DNA of 36,326 bases from Dissophora ornata (taxonomy: Eukaryota > Mortierellomycota > Mortierellomycetes > Mortierellales > Mortierellaceae): assembly GCA_025201705.1 (NCBI GenBank), contig MU616859.1:1-36326 (forward strand), given 5' to 3'. A program made the translations under genes and the position numbers. The notes beneath the pieces are model-generated. The model saw nothing but the letters and a program-made list of their open reading frames with translations, searched no databases and was not told where the DNA came from. Of this stretch, positions 1 through 7,039 are shown piece by piece (the stretch's first letter is position 1; each line of letters starts with the position of its first letter).

Positions 1-358
1 AAAAAAATCGTTGGCGTAGAGTTGGCGTTTGGTTGCATGATAGGCCAAGTATCACAGGACAGAATCTCAATGTTGGTCACCAAGTGCACCCCTGCAGAAA
101 TTGATAGTTCCTGCGACAATGGCGTGCTGAGGCCACATACATAGCAAGAAACCACCTCTTTCAAGCATGGTGCAATTGTGCAGGATCCACAATAAGGTGT
201 CAAGTACTGTCCCTCTGTTGCTTTAGGATTTTGTCGTGAAAAGGAGTACATCTTTTCTTTCTTTTCATCACTCACTCCTCCTCTCTATTCCCAGACTATT
301 CTCCAGTGCTCACTCACATAATTATTTCCTAGAGCAACTACTCCACTATTGCCCCGCC
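1..358. other. 5' flank of the PIN-Fanzor gene, no gene seen
   Basis: I see no recognisable gene here. The downstream reading frame is open back to an in-frame ATG at 236, but that extension is a low-complexity Ser/His/Leu stretch, whereas ATG 359 gives the Met-Gly start usual in FEN1/XPG proteins. I therefore treat 236-358 as 5' UTR/promoter. I found no terminal inverted repeat matching the 3' flank. Confidence 0.5.
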
Positions 359-3300
359 ATGGGCATCCTGAGCTTATGGCCCTTGCTTAAGCGTAAGGGT
401 TATGAAGCAACCTTGTCCAATCAATGCCAAGACCTTTCCGCCACCTCTGACCCCACTTCAAGGATCCTAATCGACGTCCTGGGCAGTATTTTCCCTACCA
501 TTCGCCAAGCGTACTCAACAAGACCCCTTGACCAGGCACATGCGGTCGCCGAACTCAAGCTACGGGAGCTTGCAGACCCTTCAAATGGAATTCTTTACCT
601 GGATGGATCCCCCGCAGCGGAAAAGATGCTCACACACCAAGGTCGAAAGGATATGCGTGAGAAAGCTCTAGAAGCCGCCGACAAGTGCACCACCAAGCTC
701 ATGGCTCGTGTTACTGAAAAGCTCCGCGTTCGGAAGCAACAGTTCCGCAAGATTCGCAAGCACTTGGACAGATCTTACTATTGGTCTGTTGCATCCCGAC
801 AAGCATTTGCCCAGTACTGCAGATCGAAGGGCTGGACTGTCATCGAGTGTTCAACCGAGGCGGATATCAGGATTGCAAACGACTGCGGAACCCACGACGT
901 CGTAATATCAACAGACAGTGATATGCTTGTTTACAAGACGGTGTCAAGGATCTGGAGACCAATATCAAAAAGGCGTTTTCTTCAGTACAAGATATCAGAC
1001 GTGCTTGACAGCCTTCAGATAACCAGGACCCAGTTGACTACACTGGGGATTGTGTCTCGCAATGATTACAATCGTAATGCGTCCGGATTGGGGCCTGAAA
1101 CTAACTTTGAGATAGTCAAGGGGCTTCGGGGCACTGGTGAGTTTTGTCCGCATTATACTATTACATCCAAGGATATGAAGGCTTGAATATGAATTAGTGG
1201 ATTGATACCAGGTGCTGGTATTGTGGCTGCAATTGATAGATCCCGAAGCGATGGTGAAGTGTTATTTGGCTGATCGTCGCGTTGTCCTCAAGAACACGGA
1301 GAATTATACGTTTGAAAACGCTATACGGGTGTTCGTTCGCAGGATCCAGACGCTTGCAAAGCCAGGACCCTGCACATTCTCTCCAGGGCAAACGCCGGCG
1401 CTCACTTTTGACGCTGTCAAGGCCAGATTCCATCAAGTGTGCGTGCTACAAGCCAGGAACAAGATCGAACAAAGAGCACTCCAACTCACGCGGAGCAGGT
1501 AGGATGCTACTGCTACTGCATTACAGCCTAGGTAATCAAGATACCCTATCTTCACTCGGTTGAGTATGTTGGACTTACAAATGTCATTATTCTCTTTGTC
1601 CAGGACCTCTTATGAGGACAAGGTCCAGAGGCACAAGCTGTCTCAGGAGTTCAATAGGTATCGCACTATCGACCAGCCCCCTCCAAAAGAGAAGGAAGCT
1701 CCCGAGGACATGGCGACAGACGCTGGCGCTCCAGGACTCCATGCGAATTCCCCCCGTCAACGACTGCGATTTTCCATCAAAGTGCGCATCCGTCAGAAAA
1801 CTCACGAACCGCCTGAGGCCATGAAGCAGTATGTCTGGAAACCTTGGACGAAGCTACCCGAGAAACCAATTGACTCCAGCAGCAACGCCGCCAACAAAAA
1901 CAAGGCCGGGGCAACTAAAACCCCACGGAAAGATATCAAAAAGCTGGCAGACATAGGAAAAGTCGGCCTTGTCCGTGCTCTAGGCCGGGAGCACCCTGTT
2001 GTCAACTTAGATGTTGGCACTCTAGGAGCGAACGTCAGGGAGGTTTTAAAGGGCGAGCCGGCTCTGCTACAGGAAGTACTTAAGACCATAAGGGAGGCTG
2101 TTTATCTCGCGGCACGCATTAAGCGATCAGGCCAACGAGTCATTGGGCTGTACGTTGAGCAACTCAGTCGTCAAAGTGTTTTGCAAGATCTCGATGGAAC
2201 CCTTTTAGGATTTCTCTGTAAAAGCATCGCACCCAAGGACATGAACTCTACTCTGGACGACAACGATAGTGTTGATCAAGTTGAGGACAACAGTGACCTG
2301 GATGGAAAGGGCGACAGGCACATGCAGTTCCTAGAGTCTTTTCTGCGATACCTCTACTCTGGCAACTATCCGCGCCAGAAAGGGATCGGACAGCATGTGA
2401 ACAATTTCATAAAGCGTTCGGAGGAGTTGGGACTGCTGGAGAAAGGTGAACCTGGCGCGATAAAGGTAACAATAGACTTCACCCCAGAAGCGCTGACACG
2501 GAGCGCTGCTTCTCAGCTCGCTATCGAGATCAGGAAGATGTACAGAAACGGGAGTTATGACCTGTATGAAAAGGTATGCGCCAACGTCATTACACCTAGC
2601 TCGCTGCATTATACATCCTAGCTCGCTGCATTATATACTAATATTGATAATGGTTTCATCGTAGCTCAAGCTCCAAAAGGAGAAAGGGTTCCTGCCGGAA
2701 GGTTGTAACATTGAGATTCGCAAGGACCGCTCAGCAATCGAGAACTTTATCCATCTGAACAAGATCAGCAGCAACAGTCGCCGATTGGCTCCTTTGTCGC
2801 CTATAGAACACCAATTCCTGACGTTCAGTGAGAGAGAGCTGGCGGCTTTGTTTTGGAAGAGGGACCTTTTGAAAGTCCGACTTCAAGAACTCGCCTCGTC
2901 CTCCTACAGCAGCATCGAGGCTAGCAGGCTAACGCTCCAAGACGTAGATGATTGGGTCGCGGGTATCGAGCCTGGATTCCTCATCAAGCGCCTTCTTTCA
3001 GGTGTTGCTGAAGAGTATCCGAGTTCTCGCAAACGAAGTAAAGCAGGAGTCAAGGCTGCGGTTCAGTTGATGTCTTTGGAGGAGATCAAGAAACATGTCG
3101 AACTCCTGCAGCAAACCGATTTCAATCCTGCCACATACAACAAGAAAGGATATGTTTTGCGAGGCTCCATTCGGACGGACGGTTTTCGAGTACAGTTGTT
3201 GGCATTTAAACTTAGAGAACTACAGTCAGTCCGATATAGATGGTTACCAGACAGCGTCCTACCTTCGCGACTCACCACCGCCACTGCAGGGACCGACTAT

Positions 3301-4290
3301 TATCTAACGGAGATCCGCAACATCATCAAAACCAAGCAGGATGTCACAGATCTTTGGGGCTGTAAGCCGGAGCAGATTAACATCGTAGGTTTGGACCTTG
3401 GCCAGGCTTGCGTTGTTGGCGCGAGTGCGCTGTTTTCAGAGTCTCCTCACCCTCTGGATCACTTTAATCCTGTCAAATTCTACAATTTGGCTGTCAAGCG
3501 AAAGGCTGTATATCAACCGACCTTCAAGCATCGCCTCTGGATGGAGGAGCAAAAGGCACTTGTCCCGATGGATGCCACAAGATCGATAGCTGACATTGAG
3601 AGCAGTATGCCACCGCTCCGTGGCGAAGGCGCCAACTTGCTCAGCTATTATCAGGAACTGGAAACAATGCAACAACAACTCGACACATTCTATAACGGCA
3701 ACAATAACCGGTTCAAGAAGCACAAGTGGGACGCACAAAGGGCCAGGAACAGCGAGTTCATTGCTATCACGAATAGGATCCTGAGGTTAGTAGGAGGGTC
3801 GATTGGCTGTCGCAGGAAGAAGAAGCAGAAGGTGGTTATGGCCGTTGGTCTTGGCCAGTTCTCAAGCAGCGCAAGACTTTCCTCGTTGCATGACGCTTTT
3901 ATGGCGTTTTTTGTGCAGAAAGTGAGTATCTTTTATCAATCATGTATTGCTGCCCGCTGTTTGACTTTTTTATTATAATATGTCTAACGCAGCGTATCCG
4001 GTATTGTTCTTGGCTAGGTGCGATCCCTGGGCTATATCGTGGTTGGTGTGAATGAGTACTATACCTCCAAAAAATGCCCTGTGTGTGAGAAGTTTGTGGC
4101 TCAAGTGGAAATCCGCCGCCTGTACTGCCCACACTGCAAGGTCTTTATGCACAGGGATGTGATGGCAGGGCACAATATTGCCAACGTGGTTCGAGGCCAC
4201 TTGTTCAATCAACAACGGCCCCTCTATCTGCAGCCCGTGGACAAGGACGGCTCTTACCCTTGGATGCAGTGGCAGCACAGACAGCAATAG
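359..4290 (+). CDS. XPG/FEN1-like PIN nuclease fused to a Fanzor (TnpB-like) RuvC nuclease
   Basis: Exons 359-1136, 1240-1498, 1604-2573, 2665-3921 and 4018-4290 join with GT-AG introns in consistent phase to give 1178 aa. Residues 1 to about 300 resemble the FEN1/XPG fold: an MGILSLWPLL start and acidic residues at the expected metal sites (D39, D82, E167, D169, D186 and D188 in ISTDSDML). Residues about 300-670 are helix-rich, with a basic linker, and unrecognised. Residues 670-1178 resemble Fanzor: TDG (840-842), RuvC-I GLDLG (D913), GLGQF (1064-1068), VNEYYTSKKCPVC (E1101, C1108, C1111), CPHC (C1125, C1128) and HRDVMAGHNIANV (D1135). The usual TnpB glutamate position is not acidic, and E1101 sits where Fanzors carry their relocated catalytic Glu. 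Fanzors are known RNA-guided DNA endonucleases of eukaryotes. That this copy is active, and what the PIN domain does, is inference. No transposon ends were seen. Confidence 0.88.
2595..2635 (+). repeat. 22-bp-period tandem duplication inside PIN-Fanzor intron 3
   Basis: A 19-bp block (cctagctcgctgcattata) occurs at 2595-2613 and again, identically, at 2617-2635. The period is 22 bp. It lies wholly within the intron at 2574-2664, so it does not affect the protein. The identity of the copies suggests a recent local duplication. Confidence 0.85.
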
Positions 4291-4375
4291 CGAGCCTTCC
4301 GTCATTACCGCGTCGAGCCAAGAGTGTGCTGCTGGTGGGCGTAGGAGAGTTGAGTTAGTTAGACAAGTATTATTT

Positions 4376-4459
4376 GTGTGTTCGCCAACACACTTCCCCA
4401 GTGCCGATCTCGGATCGTCTCAACGCGCTCACGTCATTACAATAATAATGACGTGAGCG
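4376..4459 (+). other. Three consecutive stem-loops 3' of the PIN-Fanzor gene
   Basis: Three inverted repeats follow one another, starting 86 nt after the stop codon. The first has 7-bp arms (4376-4382 and 4387-4393, loop of 4). The second has 5-bp arms (4405-4409 and 4413-4417, loop of 3). The third has perfect 14-bp arms, cgctcacgtcatta at 4426-4439 and its complement at 4446-4459, with a 6-nt loop. In TnpB/Fanzor systems the guide RNA (omega RNA) is typically encoded at and beyond the 3' end of the nuclease gene, so this could be a scaffold. Alternatively, the TGACGTG half-sites in the third repeat and the nearby TCACGTGA could be bZIP/bHLH sites for the next gene, whose ATG is 118 bp downstream. 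Confidence 0.6.
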
Positions 4460-4576
4460 TCATCACGTGATTCATCATGATCGAAAAACAAATAAACAAA
4501 ACGGGCAACCTCATTCGCATTCATTCGTCAACGCAGACCCGAACAATTGGCAGAAAAGATAGAGACTACAATCGAC

Positions 4577-5627: not shown

Positions 5628-7039
5628 TCAGTAAATATTGTCCACAAAAATATTGACGACTGCCTTGTGGGCACCAATCCGGCGGTCGTTGAACTTGCGG
5701 ACAGTCTGGTCAGAGATATTCTGGTCTTGCTCATACGCAACCGCGTAATTGCCAAGGAGGTAATCACTCGCAAACGAGCCTCTATACAGGTTTATGGTAT
5801 CCAGTTTGCCACGGCTGGCCTGAAATGCCAGATCCCAAAAGAATAGCGCCGGGCTGTGCTCAGGTACTTCATAGATATCAATTGTCCGGAGCCCATGGAA
5901 GTCACGGAAGGCTTCCATCACGAGCTTGAGGTCATCTCGCTGTGAGTTGATCTGCTTGTAGGTGAGAGTAAGTCGTTCCAGGACATTGCATTTGTGGGCC
6001 AGCAGCCCGAGCAGAGGCAAGCCGAACATGATCCTATCGCAGCGGTGGAGTTCCAGCTCCTTCAGGGACGTACTCGAACAGGATCGTGCGATCCACTCCA
6101 CCGCTGAATCTGTGATCTGATTACACTCTGCCAGGTACAGCTTCTGAATTTGAGGACAGTGCTTCGCAACGGCGAGTAGAGATGCATTGGTCATCTTAAG
6201 ATTGCCGGTCAGGTTTAAGACACGCAAGTTCCGCCGACAAAACTTGGCGACCGAGAACAGACCCAGATCGGTGAGCTGTCGACAGTATGACAAGTTGATG
6301 GTTTCGAGGTACTGGCACCTGTCCACAATCAACGCAACGGCCGTGTCTGTCACCCCAGAGGTTCGCGACAAGTTTAAGGAGACAAGATTTGGGAAGAATG
6401 TAGCCAGAGATTTGAGAGTCGGCTCCTGTATGTCGGTACACTCGCTTAGGTCCAGGTTCTCCATGCCCGCATGGACCAAGGAAGCTTTGGCTAGTTTGCG
6501 GAAGGTTTGACCCTGGACGAATGGTGAGGAGGTCTTCTTGCCCGAGAGACAGAGAGTGTGGAGTTTTGGTGCGTTCTGGAGAAGCGTGAGAAGCCAGTCG
6601 TCAGGCAGAGTGCCATATAAAGTTTCCTCGACCTGGGACATGTCTAGAGAATGGATCATCTGTAGGGTATCAGGCTGCAGTGCACAGCTCTTCATCGAGG
6701 AAAGGATAGACTGCATGCACTGGAGAGGCGTGTAAACAAAGCTGTTGCTGAGCTGAGGGTTTGCCCAGAGGAATGGCTTCACTACTTGGTAGCACTTCAG
6801 ACGAGCAACGGAGCAAGGGGAAACGTAGTTAGGGGTGATGTGTAGGCTGGCTGTCGTGGGAAAGAGATCATGAGCTTATCAATGACTGCTAGCAGACGCT
6901 GACTTGCCTCGTGGTTGACGAGAGCGAGCGTTGCAAGGGTCTCGTTGGTGAGACTGTGGTAGCGCAGGATAACGTCGAGCGCATCTGGGAAGAGGGAGAA
7001 CATGGTCGGTGGTCTGTAGTGGGCAATGAAGTCGTCCAT
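5628..7039 (-). CDS. F-box / leucine-rich-repeat protein
   Basis: Two exons on the minus strand, 7039-6904 and 6850-5628, flank a 53-nt GT-AG intron and join in phase to give 452 aa. The start at 7039 has a strong context (accATGG). Residues 10-45 (LFPDALDVILRYHSLTNETL) look like a weak F-box. The rest carries cysteine-containing LRRs of the AMN1/Grr1 type, such as LDLSECTDIQEPTLKSLA, INLSYCRQLTDLGLFSVA and LYLAECNQITDSAVEWIA. Such proteins usually act as substrate adaptors of SCF ubiquitin ligases, but the substrate cannot be told from sequence. Fungal genomes of this type often carry many F-box/LRR paralogues. The F-box match is less certain than the LRR match. Confidence 0.8.

What the first reader, a model, noticed from the sequence alone, without database searches (positions are those of the whole stretch)
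359..4290. Single protein joining a FEN1/XPG-type PIN nuclease to a Fanzor RuvC nuclease
The five-exon model is uninterrupted, and both nuclease folds keep their expected metal-binding acidic residues (D39/D82/E167/D169/D186/D188, and D913/E1101/D1135). Fanzors are eukaryotic RNA-guided nucleases related to TnpB. I know of no well-described architecture in which a structure-specific 5'-flap-type nuclease is fused to one. A two-nuclease enzyme could cut a guided target and then process the resulting flap or end. That activity is inference.
Basis: partly seen in the sequence, partly recalled or inferred. Interest (0 to 1): 0.95.

Follow-up and report, generated by a model that had tools for sequence, protein, structure and literature searches.

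The report
FEN1/EXO1-like nuclease fused to Fanzor
A fungal gene of mobile-element type encodes one protein joining a DNA-repair-type 5' nuclease to a Fanzor, the eukaryotic relative of RNA-guided gene-cutting enzymes, and the pair recurs across related fungi with both active sites kept, a natural counterpart of the exonuclease fusions that genome editors build by hand.

Summary

Related copies carry inverted terminal repeats, and 36 of 41 right-end matches stand without the gene. A hairpin with compensatory changes follows the stop codon, a candidate omegaRNA. The window's own copy has the hairpin but no detectable terminal repeat.

Likely mechanism (inferred): RNA-guided cutting, then 5'-strand resection or flap removal that favours homologous copying of the element. 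My searches found no published description. RNA guidance and 5'-nuclease activity are untested.

The parts
359..1136 (+). Exon 1: most of the FEN1/EXO1-type nuclease (residues 1-259; D39, D82, K89, R96, E167, D169, D186, D188, D236)
   Evidence: open frame and GT donor; PDB profile match to RAD2/FEN1/EXO1; superposition of the P0005 model
1240..1498 (+). Exon 2: C-terminal part of the nuclease domain and start of the linker helix (residues 260-345)
   Evidence: phase-1 intron before it also read in L031 and L038; the profile match to 1a76 runs across this junction
1604..2573 (+). Exon 3: linker and N-terminal part of the Fanzor
   Evidence: homology to relatives; dN/dS 0.33 against L029
2665..3921 (+). 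Exon 4: Fanzor core including RuvC-I Asp913 (3394-3396)
   Evidence: D913 in 50 of 50 aligned rows with a residue; dN/dS 0.18-0.30 against L029 and L035
4018..4290 (+). Exon 5: RuvC-II Glu1101 (4054-4056), C4 zinc finger, RuvC-III Asp1135 (4156-4158), stop codon
   Evidence: PF07282 E 1.2e-12; E-x6-CxxC-x13-CxxC-x6-D pattern
359..1331 (+). 5'-nuclease (PIN/FEN1-fold) domain, residues 1-290, interrupted by intron 1
1974..4233 (+). Fanzor fold, about residues 470-1160, interrupted by introns 3 and 4
   Evidence: P0005 residues 445-1122 superpose on PpFz 9cf0; transferred through the alignment, so limits are approximate
4376..4393 (+). Conserved 3' hairpin GTGTGTT-CGCC-AACACAC
   Evidence: exact here and at C791 and C824; equivalent 6-bp stem in the 13 right ends aligned, two pairs with compensatory changes, three broken pairs in all
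4426..4459 (+). Second, 14-bp perfect hairpin; analogous in place to the terminal stem of other copies
   Evidence: inverted repeat I12; RNA fold of 4340-4465, z -4.4
4291..4460 (+). Candidate omegaRNA scaffold / element right-end region
   Evidence: position after the stop codon and folding; inferred, no RNA data

Best explanation
The gene encodes one bifunctional protein: an N-terminal FEN1/EXO1-superfamily 5' nuclease joined to a C-terminal Fanzor. Shown by sequence and by the model of a relative: the fusion, both folds, both conserved active sites, multi-copy occurrence, and element right ends with a conserved 3' hairpin. Inferred: the 3' hairpin region is an omegaRNA scaffold that takes its guide from flanking DNA. 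The Fanzor half cuts the matching empty site. The N-terminal domain then resects 5' ends or removes 5' flaps at that break, suppressing end joining and steering repair towards copying the element from a homologous template. Gene-less copies may supply guides, or simply be carried, in trans. My separate estimates: one fused protein with both folds 0.95; RNA-guided DNA cutting 0.7; 5'-nuclease activity on DNA 0.65; biasing repair to retain or copy the element 0.35.
Against: No RNA-seq or biochemistry. The structure is of P0005, not the window protein. 48 of 63 Fanzor-C loci have no PIN detected within 6.5 kb upstream; truncation and contig ends were not checked for each. The window copy lacks a detectable terminal repeat. 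PIN exon 1 against the internally deleted copy L036 gives dN/dS 0.6, weak constraint on that pair. RuvC-I is DLG rather than DPG. Many paralogues are broken: one search reports stops inside numerous hits. Of the loci whose 3' end I read, L046 keeps only part of the hairpin and L035 has none. No guide-target match was sought or shown.
Confidence: 0.5

Rival explanations
1. The PIN domain acts mainly on RNA or on the R-loop: it trims the 5' end of the omegaRNA or cuts the displaced strand, rather than resecting the break.
For: The 3' region is structured and could be a substrate; the fused position suits processing in cis.
Against: Closest solved relatives are the DNA 5' nucleases EXO1, FEN1, XPG/RAD2 and the Lys/Arg pair is kept.
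Confidence: 0.15
2. The protein is itself the mobilising enzyme: the flap nuclease and RuvC cooperate to cut the hairpin-rich element ends during transposition, replacing a transposase.
For: The repeat-bounded C237 element (about 4.7 kb) holds a PIN-Fanzor gene, though a degraded one; six of 7 MULE transposase hits are on contigs without a listed repeat and the seventh, under the cut-off, lies about 2 kb past one on C292 (100 of 116 repeats listed); element ends fold into long stems.
Against: Short gene-less copies, one with a clear 10-bp flanking duplication, look like cut-and-paste elements mobilised by a Mutator-type transposase; Bao and Jurka describe MuDr-like Fanzor elements that encode no MuDR transposase (PMC3627910, section 12 read).
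Confidence: 0.17
3. Two separate genes or isoforms: the fused model is an artefact, or the PIN half is also made alone by retention of intron 2, whose donor contains an in-frame TAG (1500-1502).
For: In-frame stop just after exon 2 in the window (frame ends at 1502) and a similar TAA in L038.
Against: Conserved intron positions and phases, fused gene models in several species, conserved coding sequence on both sides of the junction, no such immediate stop in L031.
Confidence: 0.06
4. The PIN domain is only a DNA-binding or structural extension and does not cut.
For: A few relatives lose single residues (D186 in P0010, P0018, P0023; D39N in L049, D82N in L048, three changes in L042).
Against: The acidic positions are otherwise nearly invariant.
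Confidence: 0.07

Closest known systems
Fanzor1 (e.g. Parasitella parasitica PpFz, 9cf0; Spizellomyces SpuFz1)
   Same: fold over 488 aligned residues for PpFz, D-E-D triad with alternative glutamate, C4 finger; gene-less partner loci and a 3' structured region as described for SpuFz1
   Different: fused N-terminal 5' nuclease; RuvC-I DLG rather than DPG; 12% identity to PpFz over the aligned part
FEN1 / EXO1 / XPG-RAD2 family
   Same: nuclease fold, seven acidic positions, Lys93/Arg100 pair, N-terminal Met-Gly in many members
   Different: carried on a mobile-element-type protein and joined to an RNA-guided-type nuclease
MuDr-like Fanzor elements of Mucoromycota (ROr-4, PBl-3, MCi-4)
   Same: fungal DNA elements with terminal repeats and no MuDR transposase inside; 9-bp target duplications are reported there
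   Different: no fused 5' nuclease mentioned in the passages read; repeats here not compared with theirs
Engineered EXO1-based Cas9 editor and T5exo-Cas12a
   Same: 5' nuclease combined with an RNA-guided nuclease; N-terminal in T5exo-ErCas12a
   Different: man-made; here it is natural and conserved across related fungi

Membership tests
Fanzor | D-X(125,275)-[TS][TS]-X-X-[C4 finger]-X(5,50)-RD (PMC3627910 abstract) | tested here: met
   36 of 36 proteins that have a C4 finger + D, out of 151 held (window included); the regex allowed a looser gap before RD
Fanzor | alternative RuvC-II glutamate six residues before the finger (PMC10711439, passages) | tested here: met
   34 of those 36, window included: E1101-x6-C1108; E1101 in 35 of 38 aligned rows
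Fanzor | DPG motif at RuvC-I, reported as near-exclusive (PMC10711439, passages) | tested here: not met
   window DLG; among 52 aligned rows DLG 39, DGG 5, DAG 3, DMG 1, DPG 1, gapped 3
Fanzor | Fanzor fold | tested here: met
Fanzor | binds omegaRNA and cuts guided DNA | not testable with these tools
   candidate structured 3' region only
FEN1/XPG/EXO1 5' nuclease | seven acidic metal-site residues | tested here: met
   all seven in the window; conserved in relatives (invariant in the 11 of 20 PIN segments aligned)
FEN1/XPG/EXO1 5' nuclease | Lys93/Arg100 catalytic pair (equivalence from spacing; roles recalled) | tested here: met
   K89 and R96, 23 of 23 rows with a residue
FEN1/XPG/EXO1 5' nuclease | fold | tested here: met
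FEN1/XPG/EXO1 5' nuclease | structure-specific 5' nuclease activity | not testable with these tools
   none
Mutator-like (MuDr) element | terminal inverted repeats | tested here: inconclusive
   present on relatives, not found for the window copy
Mutator-like (MuDr) element | 8-10 bp target duplication | tested here: inconclusive
   10 of 10 bp at C465, weaker elsewhere; over 11 elements mean shared length 4.18 against 2.78 mismatched, largest of 300 shuffled means 4.9

The most novel reading that the evidence does not exclude
A natural exonuclease-coupled RNA-guided nuclease: a selfish element evolved a single enzyme that makes a guided break and then resects its 5' ends itself, forcing recombinational repair that copies the element, the same trick genome engineers reached with EXO1-Cas9 and T5exo-Cas12a fusions.
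Probability: 0.35. Interest if true: 0.93.

Novelty: new variant of a known kind. Interest (0 to 1): 0.85.

Why it matters
In the passages I read, Fanzors are described with a single nuclease centre. A conserved two-nuclease version would suggest that a eukaryotic RNA-guided nuclease recruited its own DNA-end-processing enzyme, would give a direct handle on what Fanzors do for their elements, and would be a ready-made editor scaffold that may bias repair. It would also be a case of a FEN1/EXO1-type enzyme captured by a mobile element.

Tried and rejected
Chance or artefact fusion: rejected. Terminal inverted repeat for the window copy: none above shuffled scores (W 18 against shuffled mean 15.9, max 25; likewise L036 and L031; L033 had no shuffled control). 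Right-end motifs sought on the 5' side with one pattern set gave no inverted hits; left-end repeats appeared only after reading flanks. Target duplication test: only suggestive. Covariation beyond hairpin 1 was not quantified; the terminal stem was judged from separate folds of 14 sequences, where L042 lacks it; L033 folded poorly (z -0.7). One dN/dS row (exon 3, ratio 1.01) used a wrong frame and is replaced. One search printed nothing (bad regex; redone). A first count of 4 PIN loci with a left repeat includes C120, where that repeat belongs to a gene-less copy lying directly upstream, so 3 of 49 stand. Protein searches scored only the candidates sharing most words (8000, 7998 and 8000), so more distant relatives outside Mortierellaceae are not excluded. 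Literature: no paper held Fanzor+fusion+XPG, Fanzor+PIN domain, Fanzor+Mortierella, or transposon+flap endonuclease domain+TnpB; TnpB+FEN1 gave one listing on genome integration, not opened; Fanzor alone is in 82 papers, 40 listed, four opened in part; a broader search listed 20 of 47 papers, none opened from it and none titled on such a fusion. The 2023 Science Advances Fanzor survey is recalled and was not looked up by id. FEN1 residue numbers are recalled.

Full report
The five reported exons join without interruption into 1178 aa and all four introns are GT-AG; the named acidic residues are present. Pfam alone is strong only for the C-terminal finger region (E 1.2e-12) and borderline for XPG_I.

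The fusion is a family trait. A protein search returned 51 relatives, all named and all from Mortierellaceae genera (family membership of the genera recalled, except Dissophora); about a dozen, 1002-1358 aa long, align over 95-100% of the query. Two further searches gave 24 PIN-type and 100 Fanzor-type proteins; their named hits are again Mortierellaceae, the rest unnamed metagenome entries. Each search scored only about 8000 candidates, so wider occurrence is not excluded. One hit, a Dissophora ornata protein on a 14,480-base contig, matches the length of contig C791 of this genome, so the host is probably D. ornata; the nearest protein of another D. ornata record set is 82-95% identical to the window gene, so probably not the same strain.

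In the window's own genome I counted 49 PIN loci and 63 Fanzor C-terminal loci (59 PF07282 sites plus four). Fifteen Fanzor loci have a PIN on the same strand within 6.5 kb upstream; in 14, the window included, it is a substantial PIN and in C824 only a remnant. Spacing is 2.6-3.1 kb except at C120, where the hit is an inner exon (C123 has a second, more distant PIN fragment). The other 48 of 63 have no PIN detected. I did not resolve why for each, so PIN-less Fanzors may exist here. Introns 1 and 2 of the window gene recur at the same positions and phases in L031 and L038, read from the sequences. The window, L031, L033, L038 and L045 keep all 12 examined catalytic residues of both sites; L042, L048 and L049 have substitutions; the remaining fetched loci cover the sites only in part. 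This does not make them intact: one search reports stops inside many hits.

The N-terminal half is a FEN1-superfamily nuclease. One family profile matches RAD2 (8e-13), FEN1 (1e-12) and EXO1 in the PDB, and the PIN alignment does so over most of the domain. The seven acids correspond to D39, D82, E167, D169, D186, D188 and D236. Among rows with a residue (window included) they are kept in 18/19, 22/22, 25/25, 25/26, 24/28, 27/30 and 30/31. K89 and R96, spaced from D82 as FEN1 K93 and R100 are from D86 (FEN1 numbering recalled), are 23/23 each.

The C-terminal half is a divergent Fanzor. D913 is kept in 50/50 rows, E1101 in 35/38, D1135 in 36/36. Of 151 proteins held, 36 have the C4 finger plus Asp; all 36 meet the Bao-Jurka motif and 34 the alternative-glutamate pattern, but the family has DLG, not DPG, at RuvC-I. 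By sequence the only PDB match for this half under E 0.001 is mimivirus TnpB-like L79 (E 6e-4).

Selection. Against paralogue L029, dN/dS is 0.33 in exon 3 and 0.18-0.23 in exon 4; against L035, 0.26-0.30. For PIN exon 1 the only copy compared was the internally deleted L036, giving 0.6, so PIN constraint rests on between-species conservation: mean identity 43% for PIN and 42% for Fanzor over 17 chosen proteins, with correlated distances (r 0.63, 0/5000).

Element context. After the stop codon of the window gene lies GTGTGTT-CGCC-AACACAC (4376-4393), also exact at C824 and at C791, an internal-deletion derivative. Equivalent hairpins occur in the 13 right ends aligned. RNAalifold gives six pairs, two with both sides changed in some sequences, and three broken pairs in all. 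L046 keeps only the first part and L035 has none. Right ends fold better than shuffled sequence to varying degrees: z -6.2, -5.2, -4.4 (window), -2.9, -2.9, -2.8, -2.1, -1.8, -1.0, -0.7. A right-end probe from L041 has 41 matches; 36 have no PIN or Fanzor hit within 3 kb. Fourteen short elements (0.5-0.9 kb) with both ends can be paired from the listed matches: nine facing repeat pairs and nine left-right end pairs, four shared. This recalls the 134 ghost loci of S. punctatus (PMC10432273, passages). The fullest left ends are inverted copies of the right end (GAAACGAGGACAATGGGCGCGAAAATT; 2 of 14 left ends show all of it, others part or none). The 21-base core has 116 matches with up to 3 mismatches against 0 for the reversed control. 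Of the 63 Fanzor loci 8 have a right repeat within 800 bp (0.08 expected); of 49 PIN loci 4 have a left repeat within 1.5 kb (0.12 expected), one of which, C120, belongs to a gene-less neighbour, leaving 3; both counts use the 100 of 116 repeats listed. A clear 10-bp target duplication exists at C465; others are imperfect and the pooled test is weak. The window copy shows no terminal repeat, and the contig starts 358 bases before its ATG, so its left end may be missing.

Mechanism. Fanzors are RNA-guided DNA endonucleases (PMC10432273, passages). Combining a 5' nuclease with such an enzyme is known from engineering: an EXO1-based Cas9 editor raises HDR and lowers NHEJ (PMC11107001, abstract), and T5 exonuclease has been fused to the N terminus of ErCas12a (PMC8945719, passages). 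An element that gains from recombinational repair of a guided break would gain from carrying the same combination. This step is inference; omegaRNA processing and end processing during transposition remain open.

Novelty. My literature searches found no description of such a fusion; the library lacks many subscription papers. Public records already hold some of these proteins as hypothetical, Cas12f1-like TNB domain-containing, XPG-I domain-containing or Rad2 nuclease, so the sequences are deposited but, as far as I could see, not described as fusions.

Noticed in passing
window 1498-1502: The intron 2 donor carries an in-frame TAG, so retention of intron 2 would make a PIN-only protein of about 346 aa; L038 has a similar TAA, L031 does not.
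   Followed up: partly
L036 (C791) 3061-3890, minus strand: Internal-deletion derivative of the window-type element: sequence matching window 251-903 is followed directly by 4268-4395.
   Followed up: partly
L050, L051, L053 and other places: Gene-less copies of roughly 0.5-0.9 kb share ends with PIN-Fanzor elements; in those read, a GT...AG stretch that could be an intron precedes the 3' hairpin, so they may be transcribed ghost loci.
   Followed up: partly
L048 (C120) 5998-6820: A gene-less copy lies with its right end about 5 bases from a PIN hit of a PIN-Fanzor locus.
   Followed up: no
L031 5730-6463 and 7125-7859: A 735-bp piece of the Fanzor RuvC region is duplicated downstream at 95.5% identity.
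   Followed up: no
L030 102-290 and L040 790-978: Short repeat beginning ACAGTCAACCCCCGATAT, resembling a pogo/Tc1-type non-autonomous element (label recalled).
   Followed up: no
window 4496-36326: Ordinary host-type genes downstream by Pfam among the ten frames scanned: S4-domain protein, LRR protein, VPS8 (two frames), CBM5/12 protein, multicopper oxidase, RFC1 C-terminal domain; three frames had no match.
   Followed up: partly
L041 553-2269 and L043 7933-9501: Two contigs beside Fanzor loci hold similar long tandem arrays (unit about 126 bp, judged from alignment offsets).
   Followed up: no
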